From contig NZ_RAPV01000003.1 of the NCBI RefSeq assembly GCF_003610295.1, forward strand, positions 186,001 to 250,000: a DNA stretch of 64,000 bases, given 5' to 3'. The position numbers were made by a program, and so were the translations under genes. Positions 20,863-38,077 of this stretch are shown here, one piece after another. Source of the DNA: Paraburkholderia sp. BL23I1N1 (GTDB lineage Bacteria; Pseudomonadota; Gammaproteobacteria; Burkholderiales; Burkholderiaceae). The notes under the pieces were generated by a model, which was not told where the DNA came from, did no database searches, and saw only the letters and a list, made by a program, of their open reading frames with translations. Each line of letters opens with the position of its first letter. Positions within the stretch are counted from its first letter, which is position 1.

Positions 20863-21072
20863 ATGAAGCGATTCATAGAAGGTGAAGATCGCAAGCAGGT
20901 GACGCTGCTTCCAGAGTGCCTCGATGACTTCGTCGCAGAGGACAACCCGGTAAGGGTTATCGAGGCGTTTGTAGAAGAGCTTGACCTTGCATCACTGGGC
21001 TTCGATGGCGCGATGCCGTCGACTACAGGTCGCCCGTCCTATCATCCAGCAGTGCTACTGAAGATCTTCATC
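20863..21072 (+). pseudogene. IS1182-type transposase, N-terminal piece
   Basis: Codes for MKRFIEGEDRKQVTLLPECL... up to LLKIFI, the conserved start of IS1182-type transposases (PSYHPAVLLKIFIYGYLNR is expected). The frame then runs into the inverted segment and stops at 21117. Confidence 0.85.
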
Positions 21073-22305
21073 GTCTTCCTGAAGCCCAGGATTCTCAGCA
21101 CGCGCATGAGATTGTAGGCAAGTACGTTCAAGCTCATCTCGGTACCCACGTTGGGCAGCCTGCGCATCAGGAAGTGTGTGTAGCCCATCCAATGCTTGAA
21201 CGTTCCGAAGACATGTTCGACGGTTCGCCTGCGCACGGTCATCGCATCAGGTGTCTTGTCCAGCCGACGTTGAACTGCTTCCAGCACCGACTCATGCTCC
21301 CATCGACTTATCCGTCGTTGGTCGCTGGGCGTGCACTGTGATTTAATTTTGCATTGCGAACAGGCGCTGCTCCAGTATCGGTGTAGCTGCATCCCGTGTT
21401 CCTCGCTGGTGTAACGGTAAATTGCCCGTTCTCCAGCTGGACATTGGTATTCGTCGTCCCGCGCAATGTAGATGAAGTCTGCCTTGTCGAATCGGCCGTG
21501 GTATTTCGCACCTGATGTTGTCGGCTTCGGCAGCATGACCGCAATCCCCGCATCCGCGCACTCCTTGATCTGAGGCCCACTGTAGTAGCCACGATCGGCG
21601 ACTGCCCGCAGTCTGGTCTTACCCATCGCGTCGCGCGCAGCTTTTGCCATGGGGCTAAGCTGCGCCCGGTCGCTGCCAGAGTTTGTGACCTCGTGAGCGA
21701 CGATGAGGTGGTGTTTGGCGTCTACTGCTACCTGTACGTTGTAGCCCACCATTCCCGAGCCTTTGCCGCTAGTCGCCATGGAGCGTGCATCAGGATCGGT
21801 CGTCGAGAGCTGACCGTCAGGCTCAGTCTTGAGTTGCTCCTTGATCTGCTCGAGGTTTCGCATCTGCTCGCGCAAGCGCGCGATCTTGTCCTTCAGCCGG
21901 GTCGTCTTTGCTTCCAGCTCAGCGGGTTGCGTACGATCTGCGGTCTCCAGCGCGTTCAGATACCGCTGAATGCTCTCCTCGATCTGCTTCTGGCGCTTGT
22001 CGACCTTACCCTCGGTGAAGTTGCGATCGCGCGTATTGACTGCCTTGAATTTGCTGCCGTCAATGGCGACCAGCGCTTGCGAGAACAGCTTCAGCTCACG
22101 GCACAGCGTCACGAAGCGCCGACATACGTTGCGGATGCCTGCGCCGTTGTCACGACGGAAGTCAACAATGGTCTTGAAGTCCGGCGCGAGGCGACCCGTG
22201 AGCCACATCAATTCAACATTGCGTTGGCACTCCCGTTCCAGGCGACGATTCGATTGAACCCGGTTCAGGTAGCCATAGAAGGCAATGCGGCTGGTGGGTG
22301 CGTGA
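20863..22305. mobile_element. IS1182-type element with an internal inversion
   Basis: The first 70 codons of an IS1182-type transposase run rightwards from 20863 to about 21072. The remainder runs leftwards from about 22277 to 21073. The last codons (KAMRLVGA, stop at 22305) run rightwards again. Re-inverting 21073-22277 in silico restores one uninterrupted 480-codon frame (LLKIFI joined to YGYLNRV, and ILGFRKT joined to KAMRLVGA). I could not identify terminal inverted repeats or a target duplication. Confidence 0.75.
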
Positions 22306-22343
22306 GCGCCCCGTAGGTCCTGAAACAAAACCCTTAAGCTCAT
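21042..22343 (-). pseudogene. IS1182-type transposase, inverted main part
   Basis: A 433-codon frame whose true transposase part begins at about 22277 with YGYLNRVQSNRRLERECQRNVELMWLTGRLAPDFKTIVDF. It includes LVAIDGSKFKAVN, MVGYNVQVAVD, LRAVADRGYYSGPQIKEC and RRRTVEHVFGTFKHWMGYTHF. The first 22 codons derive from the flank and the last about 10 from the palindromic break region. The N-terminal 70 residues are detached on the opposite strand, so the product is probably inactive. Confidence 0.8.
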
Positions 22344-23128
22344 CTAAAACGTATCAGAGAGGTTCACCTTCCCGTCGTCGCCGTAATGGCCGCAAAGGCA
22401 GCCAAACGCGCCGCTGGGGGCAGCAGTCATGCGTTGTATTGTAATTCCATTGGGTTTCCACACAGCCTGGGTCGGGCGCGGCCGATCGCGTCGGACGGGT
22501 GTCGGCCACAAACCGCCATTCACATGCGTCGTCGGTCGGACGCTCAGGCGTCGGCTCCGCACCCCTAACCGGCCATCCGATTGTCAAAGACGAACGCTCC
22601 TTCATCGGCCTAAGCGGTCATCCATATGTTATCTGGTTTCGCGCCCAGCGATTGGCCGCTTCGCCAATTGTTGGAGCGGTGTCGTGCGCGCTGGCAACGT
22701 GGTCGGTCGTCGCGGATCGGCAGCCCTCGCAGCGCATTTTGTACAGACGCGGCATGGCGATCGACGGGTACCCCGACTTTCACCCGTGGCAGCAAGCGTT
22801 GCATTGACGCCACGTATACGTGGCAGGAAGATCGCAAAAAGTCTGCTGGCGCCCTACGAATTGATCAGAATCTCGCCGGCTGATATCGCCTGCCATCAGG
22901 CGGCCATTAAATAAGTCTGGATATTCGTGCGCAGGGCCGCAGATATAGCACTCAGGCGGTCTATAAAATGATCTTTCCTGCGCGCCGGCCGCACTGTTTT
23001 GCAGCGCATCTCATTTCGCTAGCATCACAGGTCATAGCCTAGACCTTGTCCTCAGAATGCGAAGAGTCGTCTGTTTCGATTAAGGATGTCGAACTTAGTG
23101 AAACCCTGAATCGTTCAAGGATCACCAG
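22344..23128. other. Interval of intergenic repeat-like sequence
   Basis: About 780 bases with no supported gene. It resembles decayed non-coding repeat DNA. The last 100 bases should carry the promoter of the SLOG operon. An AGGATCACCAG ribosome binding region precedes 23129. Confidence 0.4.
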
Positions 23129-24808
23129 ATGAAGACGCTCCAGGTTCCCTTCCTTGTCGCAGCCATCGGGTGCCGCCACGTTCTGATTGAAGACGAAGCA
23201 CGCCTGCGGGATGCCGTCGAAACCGAACTCTGCAGGCTGGCGAAATGCGCGATCTCCCTTCACCCCTGCCTCCTTACCAGCCTAGCCGATGGAGCCAGCC
23301 AATTGGCCGCCGATGTCGCACTGAAGTTAGGCTGGAAGGTGATGGCGATATTGCCAATGGCCTTGAGCGACTATGAGCGCGAATTCGCCACGCCGGCATC
23401 TTTGGCACGTTTCCGGGCGTTGTTAGCGCAATGTTCCCAGCACCTCGAGCTGCCTGTTCCGTCCTCGATCGACGCAGACGTTTCGGGACAGCGCGCCCAG
23501 CAGTATCGTGATCTCGGGAGGTTTTTCGTCCGGCATGCGCAGATCGTCATCGCGCTGTGGGACGGTTGGGCCGAAGACGGCGAAGCGGGAGATCCGGCCG
23601 AAGTTGTGCGTTTTGCGCGTGAGGGTGTGGCCAATCCGGTTAGCGGTGGACTGCCCTCGGAAGACTGCGCACCGGTATCGCATATTCTTTGCCGGTCGCA
23701 CTGGAATCCATCTGGCACAGCCCGGGAAGAAATTGACCTAGATGCCGGCGTTGTGGAGCCGAATCGGCGCGTGATTGATTCGATGCGGAAATTCGTTGGG
23801 TCTGCCCATGACTGTTCAAGGAAATGGCACGACGTAGTCGAGACGAGCAAGCAGCACTTGTTGGGCAAGCCGCCTCACGCGATGCGCCTGCCAGAGTCGC
23901 TTGAGCCGCTAGTCGAGCTGTACGGCCTTGCCGATACCGACGCGATAATGGCGCAATCATTACGCCGCAATTCTGTTTTCGTGATTCTTGGCATCGTCTT
24001 ACTGGCAGTATTGAGTCACGAGTTCTATACCGGCCTCGTACCCACGCAGTGGATGGTGCTGGCCTATCTGGCCGGATTGCTCGGCGCATTTGCCGTGCAC
24101 CGCTGGGCGTTCAAGCGTCGTCGTTGCGACGAACGCTACCTCGACTATCGTGCGCTTGCCGAAGGACTGCGCGTACAACTGTTCTGGTCCATTGCCGGAG
24201 AAGAGACCAAGGTCTCCGATCACTACTTGCTCCATCAAGCCACCGAACTCGGCTGGATACGCGTGACGCTACGTAATCTTGCGCTGTCGATTCCTCCGCC
24301 CACGGATTCCGGCAGCGAAGCGAGCCGGTTCGGCGAAATCCGCAAACGCTGGCTTGAAGACCAGCGCAATTATTTTGTCGGCCGCGACTCAAAATTGGGC
24401 AAGGCACACTATCACGATGCGCGGGCCAAGGGCTGGAACCGGGCGGCGCTCGCAGTCTTCTTCATTGGGCTCGTGGTGATATCGCCGTGCCTGATTAGCG
24501 ATATCATCAAACTTGATCATCATGTGCGGGAATGGCTATTGGTAGCGTCGACACTCGCAATTGGCCTTGCCGGCATCTTCAAGGCCGTCGAAAAAGTGAA
24601 TGCGCATGAAGAAACGAGTCTGCGTTACCTGCGTATGGGCCGGCTCTATGACCTTGCACTGAAAGAATTCAACGCGGCGATGAGCACTGCCGACTTGTCC
24701 AGAGCCCGGCACTGTTTGACCGCGATCGGACGTGAGGCGCTGGCGGAGAACGCCGAATGGCTACTGCTTCATCGGGACCGTCCGTTCGAGGTTCCGGTGG
24801 GGAGTTAA
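23129..24808 (+). CDS. SLOG-like sensor fused to four membrane helices
   Basis: 559 residues. Residues 5-165 look like a SLOG/Rossmann-type nucleotide-ligand domain: AAIGCRHVL, LADGASQLAADVALKLGWKVMAILPM, a run QYRDLGRFFVRHAQIVIALWDG and the PAEVVRFA helix. The second half has two helix pairs (about 282-297 with 307-325, and 439-457 with 468-486) separated by a charged helical region, like the SLATT-type membrane effectors found beside SLOG and SMODS domains. It is first in an operon with a PGDYG-like protein and a patatin. A likely role is ligand-gated membrane permeabilisation during phage infection; this is inference from domain families. Confidence 0.7.
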   Translation: MKTLQVPFLVAAIGCRHVLIEDEARLRDAVETELCRLAKCAISLHPCLLTSLADGASQLAADVALKLGWKVMAILPMALSDYEREFATPASLARFRALLAQCSQHLELPVPSSIDADVSGQRAQQYRDLGRFFVRHAQIVIALWDGWAEDGEAGDPAEVVRFAREGVANPVSGGLPSEDCAPVSHILCRSHWNPSGTAREEIDLDAGVVEPNRRVIDSMRKFVGSAHDCSRKWHDVVETSKQHLLGKPPHAMRLPESLEPLVELYGLADTDAIMAQSLRRNSVFVILGIVLLAVLSHEFYTGLVPTQWMVLAYLAGLLGAFAVHRWAFKRRRCDERYLDYRALAEGLRVQLFWSIAGEETKVSDHYLLHQATELGWIRVTLRNLALSIPPPTDSGSEASRFGEIRKRWLEDQRNYFVGRDSKLGKAHYHDARAKGWNRAALAVFFIGLVVISPCLISDIIKLDHHVREWLLVASTLAIGLAGIFKAVEKVNAHEETSLRYLRMGRLYDLALKEFNAAMSTADLSRARHCLTAIGREALAENAEWLLLHRDRPFEVPVGS

Positions 24809-24857
24809 TCCCCTTGCTCCGCGAATCCTGGTTCGGCAAGAAAGTCCAATAAAGTCG

Positions 24858-24968
24858 ATGCTGCATGCCAACCTTTTGAGGCTGGGCACAATGGGAAGCC
24901 TGCACATGATGCTCAACGAGTTGCCTGATTCCGAGCCGCCTGGCCCGCTAACGGTGGAGGTGGGATGA
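24858..24968 (+). CDS. Possible 36-residue leader peptide
   Basis: ATG at 24858 to TGA at 24968 (MLHANLLRLGTMGSLHMMLN...). The stop overlaps the start of the next gene in ATGATGA fashion, which would couple translation. There is no strong ribosome binding site of its own, so it may be chance. Confidence 0.25.
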   Translation: MLHANLLRLGTMGSLHMMLNELPDSEPPGPLTVEVG

Positions 24969-25357
24969 TGAAAGCCGTCAAGAAACCGATTCCGGTTCAG
25001 GTCGAATTCGCGTCGGCATCAGCCGAAATTCGAACCGAAGAAGGGCCGGTCCAGTGTGTGAGCGGCGACGCGTTGATGACAGGCGCGGCCGGCGAGCGTT
25101 GGCCGATCGAGCGCAGCCGGTTCGAAGCAACCTATGAGCCCGTTGCACCCACCCGAATGGGCGAGAACGGCGCATATCTGAAAAGGATCGAGACCGTCGA
25201 CGCGCAGCAAACCGCTACTGAGGTGGAGATCGATCTTGGCCCGGGCCAGGGCACGCTGTGCGCGAAACCGGGCGACTGGATCATCACCTCAAACGACGGA
25301 CATCGGTGGGTCGTGGCCAGCGACATCTTCCAGAAGACCTACGACATAAAGAGCTGA
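24965..25357 (+). CDS. PGDYG-type domain protein
   Basis: 130 residues. GGAGGTGGG precedes the tandem ATG start. Two halves each look like short beta modules: PVQVEFASASAEIRTEEGPVQCVSGDALMTGAAGERWPIERSRFEATYEPV and LCAKPGDWIITSNDGHRWVVASDIFQKTYD. The KPGDW(I/Y) motif is that of the PGDYG family. The start ends 7 bases before the patatin gene, so the three genes form one operon. The biochemical role of PGDYG domains is unknown; here it is likely an accessory or regulator of the SLOG and patatin proteins. Confidence 0.65.
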   Translation: MMKAVKKPIPVQVEFASASAEIRTEEGPVQCVSGDALMTGAAGERWPIERSRFEATYEPVAPTRMGENGAYLKRIETVDAQQTATEVEIDLGPGQGTLCAKPGDWIITSNDGHRWVVASDIFQKTYDIKS

Positions 25358-25364
25358 TTGACGC

Positions 25365-26495
25365 ATGGACGCCCTCAATCAAAGGAAGTTGCTCGCCATC
25401 GACGGCGGCGGCATTCGCGGATTGCTCGCCGTGCGCGTGTTGAGTCGCATCGAAGCCATTCTGCGCGATCAGAGCGGTCGTCCCGACCTCGTCCTGGCCG
25501 ACTACTTCGACTACATTGCCGGCACCAGTGCCGGCGCCATTCTTGCCGCCGGTCTGGCGCTCGGAATGAGCATGCAACAACTGGATGCGCTTTTCACCAG
25601 CGATGCACGCGCGATGTTTGCGCCAACGGCCAATATCGTTAAGCGCATGCTGTTTGCCCGCTATGACGCTTCCGCGCTGCGCAATTGTCTGCAGGAAATC
25701 TTCGGCGTTGACACGACACTCGGATCGAACCGGCTCAGAACCCTGGTGATGCTGGTCATGCTCAACGCGCGGACGAACTCGCCGTGGCCAGTTAGCAGTA
25801 ATCCGAAGGCCAAATATAACGACGCGCAGTATGGGGTGGAAAGCAATCTGAATTTTCCACTTTGGCAGTTGGTTCGGGCCAGCACCGCTGCGCCGTATTT
25901 CTTCGAACCGGAACGGATTCGCGTCGGGACTCAGGATTACCTCTTTTACGACGGCGCGCTGTCATCGCTAAACAATCCGGCTTTCAAGCTGTTCCAGATG
26001 GCCACCCTGCCGTGCTATCGGCTCGAATGGCTCACCGGCGCGGATCGGATGCTGTTGGTGTCGGTAGGGACCGGCCTTTTTCCCAAGGAAATACACAAGC
26101 AGACGCTGGCCGAAAAGCAGGTTGCGTCAACCCTCTTGATCGCCATGCAATCCCTGATGTTCGCCAGCACCACCGAGGTCGATATGCAATGCCGTGGCTT
26201 TGCACGTGTTCTGGCCGGCGACGACATCGACGGCGAGGTGGGAAACTTGAGCAGCGAGGCGCCGATCGGCGGCACGCCGCTTTTCTCCTACATGCGCTAT
26301 AACGCCCTCTTGACCCCTGAAGGACTGGAAGCGATCGGCTGCGCGGACCTGGCAAACAATGCTTTCAGACTGGACGACGTCAACGCAATGGCAGCCTGTT
26401 CTGAAATAGGCGAGGCAGTCGGCCGGTTGCAGGTCAAACCGGAGCATTTTGCAAGTTTCCCGCCGACCGCTGAGGCTGGCGGCAGAATGTGCTAG
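25365..26495 (+). CDS. Patatin-like phospholipase, CapV-like effector
   Basis: 376-residue lipid acyl hydrolase. The oxyanion motif is DGGGIRG (13-19), the nucleophile Ser55 is in GTSAG, and the catalytic Asp196 is in YDGALS, so the Ser-Asp dyad is complete. No signal peptide. Patatins of this size act as membrane-degrading effectors in CBASS (CapV), where a cyclic nucleotide switches them on. No CD-NTase is encoded here; the upstream SLOG protein is the only candidate sensor. The gene follows PGDYG by 7 bases and converges with the kinase/TIR operon, 88 bases away. Confidence 0.88.
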
Positions 26496-26583
26496 CTGCG
26501 AGCAACACGACTGAGCGCGACTCGCCGCCTTTCGTGGAATCTGTGCTCCGATCGCCCCCGATCTTGCGTCACCGTCACCGGAC

Positions 26584-28902
26584 TCACGTTTGCGCGGAAG
26601 GTGGCGCGCGCGTGATTTGCCGCGGACCGAGCGGCTCTTCAATACGGATCGTTTCCGCACTGTGTGATTCCTGCTCGACCTCGAGCGAGACCTCTTTCAG
26701 TTGCTTCTTGACCTCCTCGATACGCCTGGTGATCTGCTCTCTCGGGTTGCTGACGAATCCGTCGCCGTCGTCGGAAACTCTGGAGCGTTGCGCCAAAAGG
26801 TTTTTGAGTTCAGCGGTAAGGGCATCCATCTCGAGAACCGCGACGTCGCCCAACAGGGGATAGTGCACGGATAGCAGCAATGGGTGAAGAATCACACACA
26901 GCCCAAGCTGTTCGCTCATTCGCTGCGCGAAATGCGCAATGACGATTCGCCGGACGTCGTGCGAGTGGAGGGCGGCGCGCGGGGTGTTCATGACGATGCT
27001 TTTCAGTAGTTCCAGGCAATCTCTGAGCGTGGATTTAATCAGCGCTTTATGCTGTTCGACGTCCAGGCGTTTCGCGTTGAGGTAGAAACTCGTCCAGTTC
27101 TGCTGGTCCACCGATTCCACGAAAACCGATGCGTGCGCGTTGATGGTAATGGTGGTCTGGGTGCCGGGCCGCTGGATGAAAAGCGGAATCTCCTCGGAGA
27201 AGGGGAGGCGTGTCAGCTCATTCATCCGGTCTATGATGGGGTCCTTGCCCGGCTCGAGCCGGAACGTGATCGCCTCGAGTCCATAGGTTCTGGCGAGTAC
27301 TTCGTTGACCGCCTGAAGCACTCTGGCGGGCAAGTCCACGCTGCGTGCGGGCTGCACCGCATCGTGAATCGATCCGTCTGCTTCCTTGGCCACCGGGACG
27401 CCGTTGACGTACGGCGAACTGTAGTAATCCAGCGCGCTCTCCGAACTGAGTGCAGTACGAACAGCGTCTGCAATCGACGTTTTGACCCGGTCTTCGAACT
27501 TATCATAGGCCGACAGCGCTCGCGCGAACGTGTCGCCACCTTGCTTATAAACGCGCACGTCTGCCTTGATCCTGACAACGGCCTTGATGGTCGGATCCTG
27601 AAGTCCGTACTCATCCTCGTCAATCGGGATGGGGTGACCCTGAATAAAGTCGATCTGGGGAATCGCGAGAATCGCTGCCACTGAAACGATTCTATAGCCC
27701 ACCTGCGCGGCCGAGGCCGCGATGCTCGCAGTGATCGACCTGGAGAATTCGAGGTCTCCGTCCACGCCGTTAAGATAGTTTCCGATCACCTCCTCGAACC
27801 GTTTGTTCAGCAGGTACGCCTTCGAGGCTTCGGCGGCGTAGTTCGGCAGAAAATCCTTGGGTATGGGCGCGCCGTTTGCCTCCCAGCGGTCGCGGTCGAT
27901 AAGCTTGTACTGGATTGCGTGCTCGACTTCGATGCCATCGCCCTTTACGCCGTTGACCGGGTAGTGCGCTTTGAATCTGATCGTGGTTTCGGCGGGCGCC
28001 GCCTCGGCATCCAGCACAGGATAAAGAATCAGCGTCTGTACGATGCGTCCGGTTCCGGGACCGAGCGCGAGGGACAGCTTTCGGGCCAGCTCGCTACAAA
28101 ATGCCGGCGTCGCTCCGCAGATATTGACCCATGTTTCCTTCGACAGCTCCTCGGCAAGCAGCGCTCGAAACCACGCCTCGACAGGTTGAATCTGGTTGGG
28201 CATCCATGGATTCCTGAGCCGGGCGCCAGACTGACGGCCCTCGACCGTACCGTCGTAGGTTAGCCGTGCGACTGAGCTTTGCTCAGTCATACCCCATACA
28301 AGTCGCGCCTTATAGCCGATCCTGTTGCTCTGCAGCATGTCTGACGTGCGCACTGTCAGCGAATTGGACGGGTCGTTGAAATCGATGGATTCGCGCGAGT
28401 CGGCCACCACCGCCGTGATCAAAACGTTCTCAATCGGAAAGTTCTGTTCGGTCAGCGCGTCCTTGATTGCCGTGCACCACGGCCCCCAGCCCGGACGTTT
28501 GTCCCAGCGCCTCGCGAACGTATCCTGGATATCGCGGCCGTATCGTGCGGTGGCGTTGCCAATCGCCTGTTTGAACGTGGTGTCGAAGTCGAAATCGATC
28601 TTGAGCGCGCGCTGCAGGAACCTACGCGCCGCGTCGGGGTTGGATTCCACTACGCCTTCAAGGCGAACGATGCAGCGCATGACGCGCGTGGTCGACGTAC
28701 TCATGTCCGGGACGTCGAGCTTGACCTCCGTGACGAACCGCCGGTTTGCGAATACGCGTACAACTTCCCGGTCCGAAAACATGCCAAGGATTGTGCCGAT
28801 CCTGCGGGCCGCGCGCTCGATCGGGAATTGCCACTCATCCCGGGTCACGGACGGCGGCTTCTTCCCCTTCGGAACAAACTCGAACAGCGACTGGATATCC
28901 AT
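26584..28902 (-). CDS. 772-residue protein with tandem band-7/SPFH-like repeats
   Basis: No close family recognised. Reading by eye shows about five units of 100-170 residues, each with a beta-rich strand pair, a helix pair and an ending like [YF]GxxIxxVxI. Examples are ARRWDKRPGWGPWCTAIKDALTEQNFPIENVLITAV, FCSELARKLSLALGPGTGRIVQTLILYPV, FSRSITASIAASAAQVGYRIVSVAAI, VLQAVNEVLARTYGLEAITFRLEP and IVIAHFAQRMSEQLGLCVILHP. That pattern suggests degenerate SPFH/band-7 modules. The C-terminus (690-740) is a coiled coil. It is the last gene of the kinase/TIR operon, 77 bases after the 921-residue gene. The SPFH call is inference. Confidence 0.55.
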   Translation of the reverse strand: MDIQSLFEFVPKGKKPPSVTRDEWQFPIERAARRIGTILGMFSDREVVRVFANRRFVTEVKLDVPDMSTSTTRVMRCIVRLEGVVESNPDAARRFLQRALKIDFDFDTTFKQAIGNATARYGRDIQDTFARRWDKRPGWGPWCTAIKDALTEQNFPIENVLITAVVADSRESIDFNDPSNSLTVRTSDMLQSNRIGYKARLVWGMTEQSSVARLTYDGTVEGRQSGARLRNPWMPNQIQPVEAWFRALLAEELSKETWVNICGATPAFCSELARKLSLALGPGTGRIVQTLILYPVLDAEAAPAETTIRFKAHYPVNGVKGDGIEVEHAIQYKLIDRDRWEANGAPIPKDFLPNYAAEASKAYLLNKRFEEVIGNYLNGVDGDLEFSRSITASIAASAAQVGYRIVSVAAILAIPQIDFIQGHPIPIDEDEYGLQDPTIKAVVRIKADVRVYKQGGDTFARALSAYDKFEDRVKTSIADAVRTALSSESALDYYSSPYVNGVPVAKEADGSIHDAVQPARSVDLPARVLQAVNEVLARTYGLEAITFRLEPGKDPIIDRMNELTRLPFSEEIPLFIQRPGTQTTITINAHASVFVESVDQQNWTSFYLNAKRLDVEQHKALIKSTLRDCLELLKSIVMNTPRAALHSHDVRRIVIAHFAQRMSEQLGLCVILHPLLLSVHYPLLGDVAVLEMDALTAELKNLLAQRSRVSDDGDGFVSNPREQITRRIEEVKKQLKEVSLEVEQESHSAETIRIEEPLGPRQITRAPPSAQT

Positions 28903-28979
28903 GTTGCTTTTCTCTCGATGTGAAATGCTCTAGCCTGGGTCGCGCGAGCGCTGAAGCCGTCACGCAGCAGTCCCGGCCT

Positions 28980-31745
28980 TCAGCCCAACGCCTTCAGGCA
29001 ATCGACGAACACCTTCAAGGTGGCCGTGCGATCATCCAATGCTGCTTTGGCCTGTTCCAGATCGACCTGCGGGAACTGGGTTCTTTTAATCCGATGCCAG
29101 TTCGATAGCAGTGGCCAACAGTCGTCCACGCGTTTGAGCAATGCCTGTGCGCGTGATTGCGATCCTTCACGAGTAGTCAGCCACGCGCGCAAGGTGTTCG
29201 AAAACACGAAGTCACTGGAGCTGGCAGCGCCTGCCTCCGGGTGCGCAGAAATGCGATGTGTCATCGCCATGAGAACTACCACAGGCAGCATCGCGAGTAA
29301 CGGTCGAATGGCGGCGCTGAATCGAATCAGCCAGGGATGAGGGTCCGGGTCCTGTTTCACGAGGCCTTCCCAATACCACCCGTTTGAAAATTGTGGCGTC
29401 TCGGGATGGTTCGGGTCGAGGCCCATTTGCAAGGCGAGCCAATGACTCAGCGCATCGTGTTCGGCAGCGCCAAACGACCCACTGGCGAACACCACATCGG
29501 CGACCTGGCGTGTGATGTACCACAGCGTTCGCTCTTCAGCGAACACGTTGTCGTGGGTGTCCGTTAGCGAGCGTGCATTCAGATATTCCCGGTTGAGCCA
29601 GTATGAAACGTACGAGCTCGATAGCAGGCGAATCAGGCTGGTCTCGCGCTGTTCAGCCGCGACGTCGCCGGGTTCATAGGAGGCCCACGGTTCGACAGCC
29701 GACCAGTTCAGCCCCCACACGGCGCGATTCAGATAATGTGCACACGTTTCAGTGAGCAGGATCACGTCGGCATTCGTCGGCGGCTCAACCTTGATCCAAT
29801 CGTAGCAGCGAACAATGTTGTCGATCAGGCTGACCAGCAGCGTGAGGCTGTCGAAGCCTGCTAATGGGATCGGCCATGTCTCGTTTTTCTCGCCAGGATG
29901 AAAGTGCTGGCGCAAGGTGTTCACGAGTGCCGCGCGCGCGTCGTCATCGTCGTGGGTCCGGGTACGGAACAGGCTTCGATACATCTCGAGTGTAATGCGG
30001 CGCGGATACTGCGTGTACAGATGCCAGAACAGAAGCGCCGTGCTTTCGGCGAGTAACTGGCGGGGCAGCACCACGTCCGGCATGGGGGCGGGCGAACACA
30101 GCGAACGGATCACTTCCAGCAGGCGGTCGTCAGGTGAGGCGCCCGCGAGTTCGGCGATCAGAGCCGGTGTCCGTCCAACGGAGCGCCGTAGCGCAAGTTC
30201 GTGGTGGGCTGCCTGGGCCGCTTCGGACACACCGGGCCGGGGCGTGCTCTGGCCTTGAAGGTCGCCATAGACGAGCCGCTTCAGCCGCTCGGCGGCCGCG
30301 GCCGGGTCTTCATGAACAAGTGTCCGAATCGCGCCAAGCTCGAGGTCCATGAATTGCTTGGCAATCGTGTTCGATGTATGGCCGTGTGCGAGCCGATGGC
30401 CGAGATGACGCATGTAGCGTTCGCGCAGCAACGGTGCCTCACGCTCGAACATTATCTGGAACATCCGGGCCCGACCGAGGCTGTCGACTTCCATTTCGCC
30501 GTCCCGATCCTGCGTTCCAGCCAGCTCCGCGATGGGGGAACCACGCCCGGCCGGTGTAAACCGGATGCTGCACTTATCGAGAATCCGGTCTGTGATGCCG
30601 TCGAACCTGCGAACGCGATTCGACGGATACCGTTTCGAAGGGGTTTCAGATGCGAGTTCGTCGCCGAGCTCGATGATCTGATCGGCGGTCATCTGCGGAA
30701 AATGCGAGACCAGAAACAGGCAGGCGGCTTCGCGGGGGGAGTCTTCGTCGCCATCGAGAACACACGCGTGAAAGAGCGCCGACGATTGCTCATTTTCCAG
30801 TGATTTCGACTGCCACGCCCGCTGGATGAATGCGACATGGCCTGGCATGTTCAGGCTCGTCAGTATGGCGTCGAGCGACCACGTCCGGTGCATGTTCAGA
30901 ACCAGATTTTCAAGGCCACGTTCTTCGTCGAGATCGAGCGATGCCTCGATGCCGAGGTTGCGGATCGTCTGTACGACGATCTCGAATGCACGATCCGAGA
31001 CGTTAAGCAAGATCGGCAATGAGTCGGCTTGCCCCTTCGTGCGAACATTGTCTGCCAGGGTCAGGCATATCAGGCCATGTCGCAGCGCGGGTGCGGGGGA
31101 CGAAGACGCGAGCAGTACCCCGCTCGCGTGGTCGACGTTTTCCGCATCCCAGGCGAGCATGAGCAATGGGCCGTCCGGTGGGGTCAGCTCCTGGCATTTG
31201 CGAAGGAAGTCGCGTGGACGACGGTGCATGCGCGTCGCACTGCTCAGCCGCTCACTGCCCGACGGTGGCGAGTCGCGCGGCACATAAATTTCCGGCGACG
31301 CAAACAGTTCAGCGGCAGCAAACCCCAGCAGACGCTCGTACGCTGCGATGATCCCCGTGCGTCCGCACGTGAGGGGAGGATCGAGCACCTTGCGCAACGC
31401 GGCGACGACTGCGCGCCAAAGCGAGTCATCAATGCCGAGTCTGAACCGGAACGAAGAGAGTGCCTCGGTCGCGGAGAAGCTGGTGTACAGACTGAGAAAG
31501 GCACGTGCCTGATCGGACCCCGGACCCGCTGCTGTCGCGGGTCCCGGTCCCGTCCCTGCCGCCGCTCCCGCTCCCGCTCCCGCGCCTGCTCCCGCTCCCG
31601 CCCCTGCGCTCGCCGCCGGGCCGGCAGCATCTTTTGAACTATCAGGTGGCGCGCCAGTTGTCGATTGATTGCCGCCGGACGCGGTGTTACCGGCGGGTTT
31701 GCTCTCGTTGTGCGCTTGTGCGGCACTCGTTGATTCGTCAGTCAT
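28980..31745 (-). CDS. Large uncharacterised protein of the kinase/TIR operon
   Basis: 921 residues, not recognised. The first 80 are a disordered Ser/Ala/Gly linker, including a long alternating Gly-Ala stretch with Pro. The rest is soluble and mainly helical, with a possible single hydrophobic segment at about 836-852 (AIRPLLAMLPVVVLMAM). There is a short acidic region with DRDGEMEVD. No P-loop, protease or nuclease motif was seen. Its start overlaps the TIR gene end by 8 bases, so it is translated from the same message and probably forms a complex with its neighbours. The low-complexity DNA at 31545-31620 may be prone to slippage. Confidence 0.75.
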   Translation of the reverse strand: MTDESTSAAQAHNESKPAGNTASGGNQSTTGAPPDSSKDAAGPAASAGAGAGAGAGAGAGAAAGTGPGPATAAGPGSDQARAFLSLYTSFSATEALSSFRFRLGIDDSLWRAVVAALRKVLDPPLTCGRTGIIAAYERLLGFAAAELFASPEIYVPRDSPPSGSERLSSATRMHRRPRDFLRKCQELTPPDGPLLMLAWDAENVDHASGVLLASSSPAPALRHGLICLTLADNVRTKGQADSLPILLNVSDRAFEIVVQTIRNLGIEASLDLDEERGLENLVLNMHRTWSLDAILTSLNMPGHVAFIQRAWQSKSLENEQSSALFHACVLDGDEDSPREAACLFLVSHFPQMTADQIIELGDELASETPSKRYPSNRVRRFDGITDRILDKCSIRFTPAGRGSPIAELAGTQDRDGEMEVDSLGRARMFQIMFEREAPLLRERYMRHLGHRLAHGHTSNTIAKQFMDLELGAIRTLVHEDPAAAAERLKRLVYGDLQGQSTPRPGVSEAAQAAHHELALRRSVGRTPALIAELAGASPDDRLLEVIRSLCSPAPMPDVVLPRQLLAESTALLFWHLYTQYPRRITLEMYRSLFRTRTHDDDDARAALVNTLRQHFHPGEKNETWPIPLAGFDSLTLLVSLIDNIVRCYDWIKVEPPTNADVILLTETCAHYLNRAVWGLNWSAVEPWASYEPGDVAAEQRETSLIRLLSSSYVSYWLNREYLNARSLTDTHDNVFAEERTLWYITRQVADVVFASGSFGAAEHDALSHWLALQMGLDPNHPETPQFSNGWYWEGLVKQDPDPHPWLIRFSAAIRPLLAMLPVVVLMAMTHRISAHPEAGAASSSDFVFSNTLRAWLTTREGSQSRAQALLKRVDDCWPLLSNWHRIKRTQFPQVDLEQAKAALDDRTATLKVFVDCLKALG

Positions 31746-32964
31746 GATCGTGCCGTGTCAACGGTTCGACGAGTACGACCGCAGCGGCTGCGCTCCGCTC
31801 TGATTGTCGTGCTAGCTGACCGCCTTCATTCAGGTACCAGAAGTTCGACGCCCCGGCGACGAGACCCAGCTGATAGAGCGTTGCGCGCGGCAACGCATAC
31901 ACTTCGCGAAGGCGCTGCGCCTGTCTCGCGTCAGGAAGCGAGAGTCCGAACTGGCCAACCTCGTTTTGCAAGTGACGCACCGATGCTTCATCGACTGCCA
32001 GCGACCCCGCGTTGTCGGGCCGTGCCCCCCCGAGCGGCATGTACTCCTGCCAGAAGCTGGCCCGGGATGTCGCGAGCGGGCCGCTCGACACCCAGAAACC
32101 TTGCGCTGCATCGTCGCTGGGCCAGATCAGCGTCATGGGCAGCGCAAGGCTCTCGTTCTGGCAGATCGTTCGCCCCTCGGTCATCTGCCGCGCGAGGCTG
32201 CGTTGCTCGGCCCATTCTTGTGGAAGATCTCGCGCAGCCCAACCTTGCAGTGCGGCCGTCGAATCAATAGTGGGCCGTCGCTTGATGAACTGGTCGTGCC
32301 AGTAACGCTTGAAGTCCGGCAAATCCGTGGCGAGAAAGTCGAGCAACTCGGGGCGCTTGATTTTCAGCAGCTCAAAGATGTGCTCGTACTGCAGCTTCAC
32401 GACCCTCATTGCGGCGTGGGCCGCGCTTTCATAAAACCCTGCGTCGGGCAACGCACCCTCCCGGGGAACGGAAAAGTCGAGTGGAGCAACGATATTGGAG
32501 AGGTCCCAATCACGATGGATCAACTGGGCGTTCGGACCGCTGACGCTTTGCCACTGATCGGGCGACATGGGGTGCCAGCGAATCGGCACGATCATGGATT
32601 TCCGCAGTTCATCGAGGGTGGCCTCAGAGCAGCCCTCGATGAAACGATTGGCGACGCGATCAACCCGGCTGCGGAACAACTCCATCTCGAAGATGCACAT
32701 CGGGCTGAAGATCCATAGCGGCGACTGGTTCCAGAAAAACAGGATCGACGAGCCGGCTGCGCGGACCAGTTCCGCGCTCCAGTCGGCGCCTGGGCGAATG
32801 CCCCGCTCTTCATCCGTATCCTTGAAAATTGTGATCGAGGCGGGTAACACGACCTCGGCGAGCCGTCTTTCCATGGACTGGAATAACGCATCGAGCCCCG
32901 GTCCGCCGCGCTTGCGTGGATAACTCCAGAAGGCGGTGACGAGGTTACTCTGCGGCCGGTTCAT
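31738..32964 (-). CDS. TIR-domain protein
   Basis: 408 residues. Residues 8-130 form a TIR domain: VTAFWSYPRKRGGPGLDALFQSMERRLAEV, ITIFKDTDEERGIRPGADWSAELVRAAGSSILFFW, and SPMCIFEMELF, with Glu93 at the position of the catalytic glutamate of NAD-cleaving TIRs. The C-terminal 150 residues (GFWVSSGPLATSRASFWQEY...LSLPDARQAQRLREVYAL...GASNFWYLNEGGQ) vaguely recall the FGE-sulfatase/C-type-lectin fold, which I cannot confirm. The start ATGA overlaps the kinase stop. Expected role: an effector depleting NAD or making a signalling nucleotide once the kinase or sensor is triggered (inference). Confidence 0.82.
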   Translation of the reverse strand: MNRPQSNLVTAFWSYPRKRGGPGLDALFQSMERRLAEVVLPASITIFKDTDEERGIRPGADWSAELVRAAGSSILFFWNQSPLWIFSPMCIFEMELFRSRVDRVANRFIEGCSEATLDELRKSMIVPIRWHPMSPDQWQSVSGPNAQLIHRDWDLSNIVAPLDFSVPREGALPDAGFYESAAHAAMRVVKLQYEHIFELLKIKRPELLDFLATDLPDFKRYWHDQFIKRRPTIDSTAALQGWAARDLPQEWAEQRSLARQMTEGRTICQNESLALPMTLIWPSDDAAQGFWVSSGPLATSRASFWQEYMPLGGARPDNAGSLAVDEASVRHLQNEVGQFGLSLPDARQAQRLREVYALPRATLYQLGLVAGASNFWYLNEGGQLARQSERSAAAAVVLVEPLTRHDHD

Positions 32965-34595
32965 TGGCTGGCTCCGGAGGACCCGTCAAGCGCATCGCAC
33001 GCACCCGGCGCGGCGGGTGAAGAGTTTTCATCAGAGATAAGGGCTGGCTGACTGGCGACGTTGACCGTGAACTGATACGTCACGCAGCCGTGGTTGGTCG
33101 CCCCAGGTCGCGCGACCCGGAATAGAACGGTCACGCTTACCGCACACGTAGGCGACTGGGGATCGCACGTGGTGGTTTGAGTCGAGGGGACCGGCTTGTA
33201 GTCCCGCTCCGGCCACCGGTTGAAAAGATACGGAAAAAATACGTTGGGTTGCGAGTTGCGCTGGCCGCGGTAAGTCACCGCTGACGCCGCGTACAGTTTT
33301 ATCACGTCATCCGGATGGCCTTGCGGCGCGTTGATCGCGTCGAACCATCGGCTAATAACGGCATCAGCGCGTTGGTCCGGCGTGCCGGCATCGCTGCCGG
33401 CCGATGCATGCTGCGAGCTCCTGAGCACGATGACGGCCAGCGCGCCCGCGGCGGCCACGACAAACGCAATAAACAGGCGGTTCTTTCGAGCCTGCGCCGG
33501 TATGGGGGGCCGCTGGGAGGATGCCTGATTTCCGGTCGTGTGACCGCGTTGCGCCGACGGCATGGGCGCCGCGTTGCCTGTTGCTCCGGTATGTGCAGCG
33601 GCTTCGGCCGATGGCCTGGCCGGCCGCGACGAGGCTTGTGGACCGCTGAATTCGGCCGAACCAGGCGCCTCGAGGGCCAACTCGCACCACGGACAGCCGC
33701 TCGCCATATCAGAACGGTATGTGTGCGTTTTCTCCACAGCGCACGTACGCATCGAGGATGCCATTGCCGCTAGCTCGCGCGACCAGCGTTCGGCATCCGG
33801 GCGCGGCGTGGAGCGTGTGCTGGAGGGATCAGTAGCCTGCCTGAAACACGCCACAAGGCCCGGTGACAGCATGTTCGCCGTAACGTGAAGCGTGGGGTGG
33901 GCGCGCCCGCCACGCGAGAGCTCCCCGTTGAAAAGCGCCGCCCAGTCGCCCACATCCTTTTGGGTCGGCTCGTCATTGAGGAACACGAGTTCAAAAATCA
34001 GCCGTGCCAGCGTGAAGTTGTCATGGTCGATCGTTCGCGCGGTGCTTTCGACCTGTCCGGTTTTCAGTTCAGGCGGCGGCCACTGCAGCGCTGCCGCTGA
34101 ATCCGCTGGATCGATAGCTTCCCCTTCTAGGAGGAAACTGTCGCATCGCGTGAGTATCAGTTCGTTGTCCATGCTGATTAGCACGTTGTGCAAATCGAGG
34201 TCTCCGACCAGCATATTCTCGGCGTGCACGGCAGCAACGCATTGGGCCAGTTGCTCGGCGAAGCGCATCATGCCGCGCCAGTCGAGGTTGGGAAAACTCG
34301 CTTGACGCTTCGCCCGCGGTATCAGATGCGCGAGTGTCGATTGATGCGCGACGAACGGAACGATGACGGCGTCTCTATCGTGGAACGTAAACGTGCCCGC
34401 GGGCCAGGCACAACGCGCACGGAGCCGGGACGAGCCGGACGAGATCAGGCGATTAATGCGGTCCAGCCGGGTCTGATTGCCGGACGTCCGATACATCTTG
34501 AGCAGCGTATCGTCGTTCTCGAGACTATATAAATCGGACTGCCTGCCTGCACTCACGCGCTCGCGCAACTTCAGTTGTTCGTTATCAAACACCAT
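32961..34595 (-). CDS. Protein kinase with zinc knuckle, membrane helix and NTF2-like tail
   Basis: 544 residues. The kinase domain (about 10-290) has an invariant lysine (Lys33, LLKMY), catalytic loop GDLDLHNVLI (Asp132, Asn137) and metal-binding Asp152 in CDSF instead of DFG. The DSF form and the following WPPPEL motif match the kinases of TerY-P type conflict systems. A CPWC knuckle (301-304) follows, then a Pro/Ala/Ser linker, a membrane helix (373-392) and a C-terminal SnoaL/NTF2-like domain (about 408-530). It is first in a four-gene operon, overlapping the TIR gene by 4 bases. No partner phosphatase or vWA protein is present in the window. Confidence 0.85.
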   Translation of the reverse strand: MVFDNEQLKLRERVSAGRQSDLYSLENDDTLLKMYRTSGNQTRLDRINRLISSGSSRLRARCAWPAGTFTFHDRDAVIVPFVAHQSTLAHLIPRAKRQASFPNLDWRGMMRFAEQLAQCVAAVHAENMLVGDLDLHNVLISMDNELILTRCDSFLLEGEAIDPADSAAALQWPPPELKTGQVESTARTIDHDNFTLARLIFELVFLNDEPTQKDVGDWAALFNGELSRGGRAHPTLHVTANMLSPGLVACFRQATDPSSTRSTPRPDAERWSRELAAMASSMRTCAVEKTHTYRSDMASGCPWCELALEAPGSAEFSGPQASSRPARPSAEAAAHTGATGNAAPMPSAQRGHTTGNQASSQRPPIPAQARKNRLFIAFVVAAAGALAVIVLRSSQHASAGSDAGTPDQRADAVISRWFDAINAPQGHPDDVIKLYAASAVTYRGQRNSQPNVFFPYLFNRWPERDYKPVPSTQTTTCDPQSPTCAVSVTVLFRVARPGATNHGCVTYQFTVNVASQPALISDENSSPAAPGACDALDGSSGASQ

Positions 34596-35442
34596 ACGCA
34601 GCGGCTCCGATCAGGTACTGATTCGCCTCTTTCGAACCACGGAACGACTATCAGGCAAGGTCTGGCTCCGGCGGCAGATACCTCGGGGCGCCAAGTCGGT
34701 CGACGTCGTTGGAGAATCAACATCGGAAACATGGACACAAGTCCGGGTTAGGGTACGAGCATCGGTTCGGTAAGCAATGTGCGGCAACCCACACAGAAAA
34801 CCTTTAATAGATTCTCATCTCAGCAATGCCCGCGACTCGGGGGAAGCAAACGTACGCGAGCAAGCCCGACATCGCGGCTGAGCAGCCCATCTGTGGTCTG
34901 AACAACAATCACATTGGAGTTCGCGAGCCTGTGTACGTGTCGGAGACTTCGCCCAGAGCGAAGCGCGTGACGAAGCTACTACGGGCCTTGGAGAAGATCG
35001 CATTTCTCTTCATCGCCATGTCCCCAGCCTATAAGTCGCGCAAAAGACGGCCATTTTAAGGTTCGACCCACCCGCTCGCTCCGGGTCGATCGGGATTCGG
35101 GACTTCGCTCGTAAGCAACAATTCGTTGCGGACTGGCCACGAACGCCTGCGCCTGAAAGCAGCGGCCGACGATATGACGACCGTGTTCCGTGCTCGAATG
35201 TCCGTTGCCATTCGAAGCATCAAACAACGCCCAATTCAAGCTTTGCACCGATCGCGGATAAGATCAAATGCCGCCTGAAGCGGAACTACCCGGCAGCGGA
35301 CATTCATCGGCAAACCGCGCCGACCGTCCGCTTCGCCCGAACTCCCGTCTCCCTACGCGAACCGACGAACGGCCGTTGTACCTTGAAAGCTGCCGTACAT
35401 GTTGCGCTGGGTCGACGGGCTGCTATGGGTCGCTATGTAAAC
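34596..35442. other. Interval upstream of the kinase operon
   Basis: About 850 bases without a supported gene. The first part should hold the promoter of the kinase/TIR operon. The rest looks like decayed intergenic repeat DNA. Confidence 0.4.
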
Positions 35443-35810: not shown

Positions 35811-37019
35811 TCAGTGCACATGGCTCGGGTCAGGGGGAGCCCGCGGCAGGATGCCAGGCACACCGCCTTCGATACGGACCATGTGGCCCTTGCCGCACAC
35901 GGGGCAATCGCGCAGTGACCTGCCGGTGAGCCGTTGGTAACGGTCACGGTAGTCTTTCGCGATGGCGGGTAACGCAGCGGCGGGAGGCTCGACGCCGAGC
36001 AGCCGCCGGCAGGTCGCCAGTCGCGCTGCCCGATGACAATTGGCGAGCCACCCGTAGCTGCGGATACGCTTGAAGCCGTCGGGCAGCACGTGCAGCACGA
36101 AGCGGCGGATGAACTCGTCAGCCGTCAGGGTCATGGTCCTGTGGCGGGCTTCGTGACGGTAGTCCTTCCAGCGGAACAGGACCGAATTGCCATCAAAGCG
36201 CAGCAACCGGTTATTCGAGATGGCGACGCGATGCGTGTAGCGGCCCAGGTAATCGAGCACCTGTGCAGCGCCGCCAAACGGTGGTTTCGCGTAGACGACC
36301 CACTCCGCGTGAGCAGCGGGCGCGAGCCAGGCGGCGAACGCTCGCGGGTCACGTAACGGCTCGAGCTGGCCATGGAAGCGCAGCGCGCCGGCGTCGAACG
36401 CGCGGCGCAGCTGGTCGAGAAAGAGCCGCCGGAAGAGCCGCGAGAGCACCCGCACGGGCAGGAAGAAGCCGGGCCGGCAGGCGATCCAGCGCTCGCCGTC
36501 CGGGGCAATGCCGCCGCCGGGTACGACGCAATGCACGTGCGGATGGTGCAGCAGGTTCTGCCCCCACGTGTGCAGGACCGTGATGAAGCCGATCTCCGCG
36601 CCCAGGTGTTTCGGATCGGCGGCGATCGTACGCAGCGTCTCGGCGCTGGTGCGAAACAGCAGATCGTAGAGCGTCTTCTTGTTCTGGTACGCGAGCGCGG
36701 CGACGGGCTCGGGGAGTGTGAAGACGACGTGGAAGTATTCGACCGCGGGAAGCAGCTCGGCGCGCCGGCGTTCGAGCCATTGCGCGCGGGCGAGCGACTG
36801 GCACTTCGGACAGCAGCGATGGCGACACGAGTCGTAGGCAATGCGCTGATGGCCGCAGGCATCGCACTGCTCGACATGACCGCCGAGCGCGGCGGTGCGG
36901 CACAGCTCGATGGCGCTCATCGCGCGGTGCTGGGCACGACTGAGGGCGTCGGCGTGGGTCTGCCGGTAGTGAGGGCCGCAGCGGCGGAAGATGTCCGCCA
37001 CCTCGAGCGCCGGTCGCAT
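35811..37019 (-). CDS. IS91-family HUH transposase
   Basis: 402 residues from the ATG at 37019. The N-terminal zinc-binding region is EQCDACGHQRIAYDSCRHRCCPKCQSLARAQWLERR. The HUH motif is HPHVHCVVPGGG. The catalytic tyrosine region is YLGRYTHRVAISNNRLL. A second zinc knuckle (CPVCGKGHM) lies near the end. It catalyses rolling-circle style transposition. It starts 9 bases after the recombinase relic. A longer frame to 37109 overlaps that gene and is less likely. Confidence 0.93.
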   Translation of the reverse strand: MRPALEVADIFRRCGPHYRQTHADALSRAQHRAMSAIELCRTAALGGHVEQCDACGHQRIAYDSCRHRCCPKCQSLARAQWLERRRAELLPAVEYFHVVFTLPEPVAALAYQNKKTLYDLLFRTSAETLRTIAADPKHLGAEIGFITVLHTWGQNLLHHPHVHCVVPGGGIAPDGERWIACRPGFFLPVRVLSRLFRRLFLDQLRRAFDAGALRFHGQLEPLRDPRAFAAWLAPAAHAEWVVYAKPPFGGAAQVLDYLGRYTHRVAISNNRLLRFDGNSVLFRWKDYRHEARHRTMTLTADEFIRRFVLHVLPDGFKRIRSYGWLANCHRAARLATCRRLLGVEPPAAALPAIAKDYRDRYQRLTGRSLRDCPVCGKGHMVRIEGGVPGILPRAPPDPSHVH

Positions 37020-37027
37020 CGCCGGCT

Positions 37028-37907
37028 TCAGAAGTACTCGGGCGCAGGCGGCTGGGAGGGAGTGGGTGCGGGATGCGGCAGCAGGTCGAAGGGACTGGTG
37101 GTGGCGCACACGGTGCTCGTCGCCAGCTTGAGGTACCGTGCCGTGGTCGCCATGCTGCGATGACCCATCAGCAGCTGGATCCGGCGTACATCGGCACCGG
37201 TTTCCAGCAGATGAGTGGCGAACGCGTGCCTCAGGGAATGTGGTGTAACGGGTTTCGTGATGCCGCTGCGCTCACGTGCAAGCTGGCATGCGTCGCCCAC
37301 GGCATGGCGGCTGATGGGCCGCCCCGGAATGCTGCCTGGAAAGAGCCATTCCCTCGGGTGGGGCGTCCTGCCAGTAAAGTCGCAGGACCTCGAGCAGACG
37401 CGGCGAGAGCATTACGTAGCGGTCCTTACGGCCTTTACCCTGGCGGACACGGATCATCATCCGCTGGCTGTCGATATCGGTGACCTTCAGATGCACGACT
37501 TCGGAGACACGCAGGCCGGCCGCATAGGCCGTCATCAGGATGGCGCGCTGCTTCAGGCTGGGAATCGACTCGAAGAAACGCGTGACTTCCTCGAAGCTCA
37601 GGATGACCGGCAGCTTCACGGGCCGTTTGGGCAACGGGAAATCCTCGTCACTCCAGTCCCGCCTGAGCGTGATGCGGTACAGGAAGCGCAGCGAGCCTAC
37701 GGCCAGTTGGACACTGGCTGGCGCGAGCTTGCGTTCGTTGGTCAGGTGGATAATCCAGGCACGGATCTCTTCGGGACCGAGCACCTCGGGTGAGCGCCGG
37801 AAGTGTCGGGCGAAACTGGAAACCTGCAGGAGATAGGTCTTCTGCGTGTTGACAGCAAGGTTGCGGATCTGCATGTCGTGCAGCATGCGTTGGCGGAGCA
37901 GTGTCAT
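37028..37907 (-). pseudogene. Frameshifted tyrosine recombinase of the IS91-type element
   Basis: Starts MTLLRQRMLHDMQIRNLAVNTQKTYLLQVSSFARHF after a good GGAGG site. It has the SAM-like N-terminus and the catalytic Arg in AAGLRVSEVVHLKVTDID. The frame breaks at about 37350, where an extra T in CCATTCCCTC (plus strand) disrupts the expected EGWLFPGS. The other frame continues with [39 protein letters not shown], with the HxxR, H and catalytic Tyr. Removing one base restores a full-length recombinase of about 290 residues. Confidence 0.9.
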
Positions 37908-38077
37908 GGCGAACCTCCAGGAGACAGGGGATGGCATGCCCGGTCGGGCACCTCCATGCTGCTCCTGGCCGCCTGCTCGTCCCTTCCTCGTGCCCCGGCA
38001 TCCGATAACCGTCCTGACCGAACGCCAGGCACTGACCCCCGCTTCCCTCCCACTACCGCGTCAGCGGTTTAGTACAG

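What the first reader, a model, noticed from the sequence alone, without database searches (positions are those of the whole stretch)
26584..34595. Four-gene kinase/TIR/large-protein/SPFH-like operon, a candidate uncharacterised conflict system
Seen: four leftward genes, two of the three junctions overlapping (4 and 8 bases). They encode a kinase with DSF motif, CPWC knuckle, membrane helix and NTF2-like tail; a TIR protein with Glu93; an unrecognised 921-residue protein; and a 772-residue repeat protein. Known: TerY-P kinases and NAD-cleaving TIRs occur in anti-phage systems. Inference: the kinase gates a TIR effector scaffolded by the two large proteins. I know of no described system with this exact set, and no vWA or PP2C partner is present.
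Basis: partly seen in the sequence, partly recalled or inferred. Interest (0 to 1): 0.85.

Follow-up and report, generated by a model that had tools for sequence, protein, structure and literature searches.

The report
Kinase-TIR-SPFH membrane conflict system
A rare gene cassette in a few relatives of Paraburkholderia appears to combine a signalling kinase, a likely NAD-cutting TIR protein, a prohibitin-like membrane-scaffold protein and two membrane-attacking effectors; it looks like a new assembly of known immune parts, and its function is untested.

Summary
The four leftward genes are real and intact at the stated coordinates. The unit is larger than reported: with Caballeronia udeis the conserved block is window 23117-34660 and adds three convergent genes, SLOG-SLATT-like (559 aa), PGDYG (130 aa) and a CBASS-like patatin (376 aa). 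P. unamae keeps the four-gene operon plus a 53-bp patatin remnant.

The window and all three named loci carry the trio with a kinase beside it. Best explanation: a membrane-associated, phosphorylation-controlled TIR alarm feeding SLOG-SLATT and patatin effectors (Thoeris/CBASS-like logic). Anti-phage function is inferred, not shown. New variant of a known kind.

The parts
32961..34595 (-). TerY-P-type protein kinase (544 aa): kinase domain, C/H/CPWC zinc knuckle, one membrane helix, tail beyond the helix
   Evidence: ORF; plasmid relatives are kinases behind vWA and PP2C genes in 6 of 7 opened, of 50 records matched; residues; helix
31738..32964 (-). TIR-like protein (408 aa) with invariant W84, C90, E93, E95 and a C-terminal region of unknown fold
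   Evidence: NCBIfam FxsC_Nterm matches 9 of 9 members at E up to 0.01, best 3.8e-7, the window's at 21 bits against a cut-off of 130; Pfam TIR_2 matches 6 of 9 at E up to 0.1, best 4.5e-4, not the window's own; alignment
28980..31745 (-). 921-aa mostly helical protein, no recognised family
   Evidence: No Pfam, NCBIfam or PADLOC match up to E 1; 2 relatives found in 5.8 billion proteins with a single-sequence query and a 33% relative in Aquabacterium; AlphaFold model poor, pLDDT 46.6
26584..28902 (-). 772-aa protein with SPFH (prohibitin/stomatin) fold and a C-terminal helical hairpin
25365..26495 (+). Patatin-like phospholipase (376 aa), convergent with the operon
   Evidence: Pfam Patatin 2.1e-23; PADLOC phospholipase effector 1.1e-40; conserved in C. 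udeis, 53-bp remnant in P. unamae
24965..25357 (+). PGDYG-family protein (130 aa)
   Evidence: Pfam PGDYG 3.8e-19; conserved at the same place in C. udeis, 68% over 128 residues
23129..24808 (+). SLOG-SLATT-like membrane protein (559 aa), four hydrophobic segments
   Evidence: Pfam DUF4231 at 24.6 bits, cut-off 24.7, and in 7 of 7 family members at E up to 0.1; SLATT_3 weak; hydropathy; N-terminal part aligns weakly (E 0.010) with the SLOG part of a Rhodococcus SLOG-patatin protein
23117..34660 (.). Block conserved at DNA level with C. udeis, the likely functional unit
   Evidence: Five blastn pieces between 23117 and 34660 at 67-76% identity to L004; with P. unamae two pieces between 26603 and 34793

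Best explanation
The locus is a membrane-associated conflict (probably abortive-infection) system that combines a TerY-P-type phosphorylation switch with nucleotide-signal effectors. Proposed working: the SPFH protein oligomerises at the inner membrane and, with the 921-aa helical protein, forms a platform that holds the TIR protein inactive. The membrane-anchored kinase (in Aquabacterium a kinase with a PP2C phosphatase and a vWA protein) changes the phosphorylation of that platform when an envelope or infection signal arrives. The TIR protein then uses Glu93 to cleave NAD+, giving either a messenger or NAD+ loss. The neighbouring SLOG-SLATT protein senses the nucleotide product and opens the membrane, and the patatin phospholipase attacks lipids, killing or arresting the infected cell. 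Shown here: gene set, conservation, co-occurrence on few loci, kinase kinship, SPFH fold of a predicted model, a SLOG-patatin fusion in Rhodococcus. Inferred: every arrow between proteins, NADase activity, the trigger, and defence itself.
For: TIR, 921 and 772 with a kinase beside them in the window and 3 of 3 named loci. Two further TIR and 772 pairs that could not be opened report equal contig lengths, 9568 and 39032. The kinase is related to TerY-P kinases, and Aquabacterium carries a full triad beside the trio. SPFH fold. TIR Glu invariant in 9 of 9. The patatin resembles CBASS effectors, and SLATT is a predicted nucleotide-responsive pore (passages of PMC7159879 and PMC9503650). A full-length SLOG-SLATT relative turned up in 2 of 388 family genomes, the same two in which the 921-aa family turned up (2 of 398). 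A SLOG-patatin fusion in Rhodococcus couples these two domain types. dN/dS below 0.3 for the six genes measured against P. unamae or C. udeis (PGDYG not measured).
Against: No experiment. TIR matches of the window protein stay far below the curated cut-off, and no TIR structure was found by profile in the PDB. Two of the three named relatives (P. unamae, Aquabacterium) lack a close SLOG-SLATT. The Aquabacterium kinase is 21% identical in the aligned domain, does not reach E 1e-3 against the window kinase, and did not group with it, so the kinase link rests on two separate associations. A fourth genome, G929, has a 131-position match to the 772 profile with an internal stop and no TIR, 921 or kinase relative in the 20 kb around it. 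The SLOG assignment of the window protein is weak.
Confidence: 0.42

Rival explanations
1. Two independent neighbours: the kinase-TIR-921-772 operon is one system in which the TIR directly depletes NAD+, and SLOG-SLATT, PGDYG and patatin form a second, separate effector system that sits beside it.
For: The two halves are convergent; Aquabacterium and P. unamae have the operon families without a close SLOG-SLATT; patatin relatives occur with a DUF4231 gene or a fused SLOG domain, and TPR-S, in Rhizobium and Rhodococcus, where no member of the operon was looked for or seen in the annotated or ORF tables.
Against: P. unamae keeps a 53-bp patatin remnant directly beside the 772 gene, so the neighbourhood predates the split of these three loci; the full-length SLOG-SLATT relative was found only in the two genomes in which the 921-aa family was found.
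Confidence: 0.3
2. A stress-response rather than anti-phage system: the TerY-P kinase and SPFH protein watch the envelope (tellurite, membrane stress) and the TIR acts as a metabolic regulator.
For: TerY-P triads are tied to tellurite resistance and proposed metal sensing as well as defence (PMC11090510 passages); that SPFH proteins are ordinary membrane-stress scaffolds is recalled.
Against: A patatin resembling CBASS effectors and a SLATT-like neighbour, rarity and transposase genes on both sides fit conflict genes better.
Confidence: 0.18
3. The TIR-like protein is not an enzyme but a structural TIR adaptor, and the whole set assembles a membrane-bound signalosome whose output is the patatin and SLATT proteins only.
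For: TIR matches are sub-threshold; no homologous TIR structure found.
Against: W84, C90, E93 and E95 invariant in 9 of 9, down to 30% identity.
Confidence: 0.1

Closest known systems
TerY-P phosphorylation triad (vWA, PP2C, kinase with zinc ribbon)
   Same: Kinase kinship and zinc knuckle; complete triad at the Aquabacterium relative
   Different: Window, P. unamae and C. udeis stretches have the kinase alone; TIR, 921 and SPFH partners are not mentioned for TerY-P in the passages read
Thoeris (TIR messenger to SLOG-bearing effector; definition recalled)
   Same: TIR gene near a membrane protein with a weakly supported SLOG domain
   Different: No SIR2-SLOG ThsA; extra kinase, SPFH and 921 proteins; effector is SLATT-like
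CBASS phospholipase effectors (CapV type; name recalled)
   Same: Patatin resembling this effector group
   Different: No cyclic-nucleotide synthase among the 8 proteins scanned
GAP1-N2 GTPase-centric systems with kinase, PP2C and vWA (PMC7159879, section 29 read)
   Same: Kinase with zinc ribbon or membrane helices beside PP2C and vWA; SLATT effectors; membrane theme
   Different: No GTPase or GAP1 component recognised; that theme is described as restricted to actinobacteria
SPFH proteins (prohibitin, stomatin, flotillin, HflK/C) and major vault protein
   Same: SPFH fold; vault protein also appears in the structural list

Membership tests
TerY-P triad | Kinase of the triad family with C-terminal zinc-binding motif | tested here: met
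   tblastn E 2e-27 (H18) and 2e-22 (H28) to kinases directly behind vWA and PP2C genes; C/H/CPxC residues aligned in 11 of 11 kinases compared
TerY-P triad | TerY-like vWA gene adjacent | tested here: not met
   tblastn of 4 vWA proteins: none in window, L002, L014, L004; controls L003, L046, L052 hit. Met at Aquabacterium L003
TerY-P triad | PP2C phosphatase gene adjacent | tested here: not met
   tblastn of 4 PP2C proteins: none in window, L002, L014, L004; controls hit. Met at Aquabacterium L003
TIR NADase | TIR domain by family model | tested here: inconclusive
   TIR_2 6 of 9 (E up to 0.1) and FxsC_Nterm 9 of 9 members (E up to 0.01); the window protein has 21 bits against FxsC cut-off 130 and no TIR_2 match
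TIR NADase | Catalytic glutamate conserved | tested here: met
   E93 invariant in 9 of 9; its equation with the catalytic Glu rests on the recalled C-x-x-E motif
TIR NADase | NAD+ cleavage | not testable with these tools
   Needs enzyme assay
SPFH superfamily | SPFH fold | tested here: met
Thoeris | ThsA with SIR2-SLOG or TM-Macro (recalled) | tested here: not met
   No SIR2 or Macro match in the seven genes of the block plus one neighbour
CBASS | CD-NTase | tested here: not met
   No CD-NTase match in the seven genes of the block plus one neighbour; the rest of the window was not scanned for it
CBASS | Known effector type | tested here: inconclusive
   PADLOC phospholipase effector 1.1e-40, but NCBIfam CBASS_lipase 113 bits against cut-off 200
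GAP1-N2 systems | GTPase plus GAP1 proteins | tested here: inconclusive
   No GAP1 or GTPase Pfam match up to E 1 in the four operon proteins; distant forms not excluded

The most novel reading that the evidence does not exclude
A prohibitin/vault-like SPFH cage at the bacterial membrane, switched by a TerY-P kinase, physically encloses or clusters a TIR enzyme and releases a nucleotide alarm to a SLOG-SLATT pore and a patatin lipase: a bacterial membrane-raft-gated TIR immune complex, with the 921-aa family as a new sensor.
Probability: 0.18. Interest if true: 0.87.

Novelty: new variant of a known kind. Interest (0 to 1): 0.62.

Why it matters
If true, it ties phosphorylation triads, TIR signalling and SPFH membrane scaffolds into one cassette, and would give a function to two protein families (921 and 772) that no library used here names. 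It makes the question of what TerY-P kinases phosphorylate in conflict systems directly testable, because the candidate substrates are encoded next door.

Tried and rejected
Viral contigs: TIR and 772 alignments found no relative. Plasmid collection: 921, 772 and two TIR proteins found nothing; phage collection with the C. udeis SLOG-SLATT found nothing. PDB sequence profiles of TIR, 772, 921 and SLOG-SLATT gave no meaningful relative; the kinase profile gave ordinary kinases. The AlphaFold model of the 921-aa protein was too poor to search, so its fold is open. Internal repeats of the 772-aa protein: five segments cut by eye from the predicted strands and helices, compared by hhalign, best probability 6.8%; five repeats are not claimed. 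VIA-align is a second look at Foldseek's own matches; families missing from its list are not excluded. Own-genome searches with the Aquabacterium vWA and PP2C found nothing but had no positive control, so partners elsewhere in the genome are not excluded. Two kinase searches over 380 family genomes failed; instead the kinase tail alone was searched (9 of 378 match, 2 full length, 7 weak at E 6e-4 to 1e-3 over at most 71 residues). Tree of 11 kinases: the window clade and Aquabacterium are long branches and not sisters; nothing more is built on it. The Rhizobium DUF4231 protein shows no pairwise similarity to the window's SLOG-SLATT protein (best E 2.8). Promoter and terminator scan gave no more sites than shuffles. 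Rejected: that the set equals Thoeris, CBASS or a GAP1-N2 system (membership table). Literature searches were in the held PMC library only; Gao et al. 2020, Anantharaman et al. 2012 and Burroughs et al. 2015 were not read, only met through others' text. Papers seen: PMC7159879 section 29 and passages; PMC9503650, PMC11090510 and PMC7699616 passages; the rest as listings.
Full report
What is there. The four ORFs are at the stated coordinates with overlaps of 4 and 8 bases and a 77-base gap. Downstream and convergent lie a patatin gene (88-base gap), a PGDYG gene and a 559-aa SLOG-SLATT-like gene. Transposase genes lie on both sides: a DDE transposase at 21042-22343, an IS91-type Y2 transposase with a tyrosine recombinase at 35811-37937 and a Tn5-type transposase at 40806-42164.

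How common. A single-sequence search of about 5.8 billion proteins found 2 relatives of the 921-aa protein and 8 of the 772-aa protein; a TIR-family profile found 9, one of them the window's own. These searches score only candidates that share short words and miss distant relatives (the 33% Aquabacterium 921 relative was not). Genome counts: 772 profile in 1 of 399 genomes of the order, the window's own, and in 2 of 399 of the Aquabacterium family, one being Aquabacterium itself and the other, G929, a 131-position match with an internal TAG; 921 profile in 2 of 398 genomes of the window's family, the second being the C. udeis record.

Co-occurrence. A pattern scan of named species genomes with the 772 alignment gave 120 candidate stretches, of which three encode a relative: P. 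unamae, C. udeis and A. humicola. All three, and the window, have TIR, 921 and 772 in this order, and a kinase next to them. In P. unamae and C. udeis the kinase leads the operon as in the window; in A. humicola it is convergent and followed by PP2C and vWA genes (Pfam PP2C_2 7.6e-35, VWA 1.2e-8). The window kinase does not find the Aquabacterium kinase at E 1e-3, so these may be two recruitments from one broad family. Against: the 20 kb around the G929 match has no TIR, 921 or kinase relative, and single 772 sequences do not match there either, so it is a remnant or a doubtful relative.

The wider unit. Against C. udeis, blastn pieces cover window 23117-34660 including patatin, PGDYG and SLOG-SLATT; as proteins these are 83%, 68% and 72% identical. 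Against P. unamae homology runs from 26603 to 34793 in two pieces, and directly beyond the 772 gene a 53-bp piece matches the inside of the window's patatin gene (25911-25963), so P. unamae lost that side. Of 388 family genomes 6 match the SLOG-SLATT protein: 2 at full length (the window's genome and C. udeis, the two found with the 921 profile in the separate draw) and 4 distantly. P. unamae has only a distant 153-residue match elsewhere and A. humicola none. dN/dS against P. unamae or C. udeis lies between about 0.09 and 0.29 for the kinase, TIR, 921, 772, patatin and SLOG-SLATT genes; against Aquabacterium it is 0.36-0.54 for TIR, 921 and 772, with saturated dS. PGDYG was not measured.

The kinase. 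Pfam and NCBIfam see it only weakly. A tblastn of plasmids matched 50 records; the 15 rows listed cover about residues 4-317. I opened 7 of the 50: in 6 a vWA gene and a PP2C gene lie directly upstream; in one (H22) the upstream genes are annotated as hypothetical. The C/H/CPxC pattern is shared by 11 of 11 kinases aligned. No vWA or PP2C gene was found in the 64-kb window or the P. unamae and C. udeis stretches, while the same queries hit three control loci.

The TIR protein. FxsC_Nterm matches 9 of 9 members and TIR_2 6 of 9, the window protein itself only FxsC_Nterm at 21 bits against a cut-off of 130. W84, C90, E93 and E95 are invariant in 9 of 9; that E93 corresponds to the catalytic glutamate is recalled from known TIR motifs. 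No solved TIR structure was found by profile.

The convergent effectors. The patatin resembles CBASS phospholipase effectors, below NCBIfam's cut-off. Of 37 plasmid records matched I opened 5: one has DUF4231 and TPR-S neighbours, one is a SLOG-patatin fusion next to a TPR-S protein (the SLOG model match, 20.3 bits, is below its cut-off of 28.2), three show neither in the stretch opened. The SLOG part of that fusion aligns with the N-terminal part of the window's SLOG-SLATT protein only at E 0.010, and with a distant member of the same family (L028) at 2e-7. SLATT is described as a predicted nucleotide-responsive pore in PMC7159879 and PMC9503650 (passages).

Reading. The parts argue for a phosphorylation-controlled membrane system with a TIR signal and two membrane effectors. 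The kinase gating, scaffold and messenger steps are inference. Published context: TerY-P modules act in defence and accompany CoCoNuT systems (PMC11090510 and PMC7699616 passages), and a group of actinobacterial GAP1-N2 systems pairs kinase, PP2C and vWA, with SLATT among GAP1-N2 effectors (PMC7159879 section 29). I found no paper with this set in searches, which cover the held PMC library only.

Verdict. New variant of a known kind; interest 0.62.

Noticed in passing
L014 1708-1760 (P. unamae): A 53-bp patatin remnant sits next to the 772 gene, whose reading frame runs on to 787 aa there; shows loss of the patatin side.
   Followed up: yes
L048 4410-6092 (Rhodococcus sp. JS3073 plasmid): SLOG(YAcAr)-patatin fusion protein beside a TPR-S protein.
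   Followed up: partly
L042 5169-9587 (Rhizobium leguminosarum plasmid): DUF4231, muramidase, patatin and TPR-S genes in a row, with two annotated TIR genes nearby.
   Followed up: partly
L013 (G929:C13:11000-30900): A broken match to the 772 C-terminal region lies in a stretch rich in TIR-like, CHAT-like and patatin-like genes (judged by eye); no operon relative there.
   Followed up: partly
window 38890-40401: P-loop ATPase of the Sll1717 family (NCBIfam 183 bits, cut-off 75); also matches the PADLOC defence candidate PDC-M28C at 5.3e-16.
   Followed up: no
L027 and L029 (G505, G675): Pairs of distant SLOG-SLATT relatives of 610-631 aa flank a 1117-aa protein that looks alike, by eye, in the two genomes.
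   Followed up: no
L003 2-1588: A patatin-like protein (Pfam 1.3e-6) lies about 4.4 kb upstream of the Aquabacterium trio, on the opposite strand.
   Followed up: no
window 26590-26660: The 772 family ends in a conserved tail (I754, E755 and P757 invariant in 9 of 9) that might be a docking motif.
   Followed up: no
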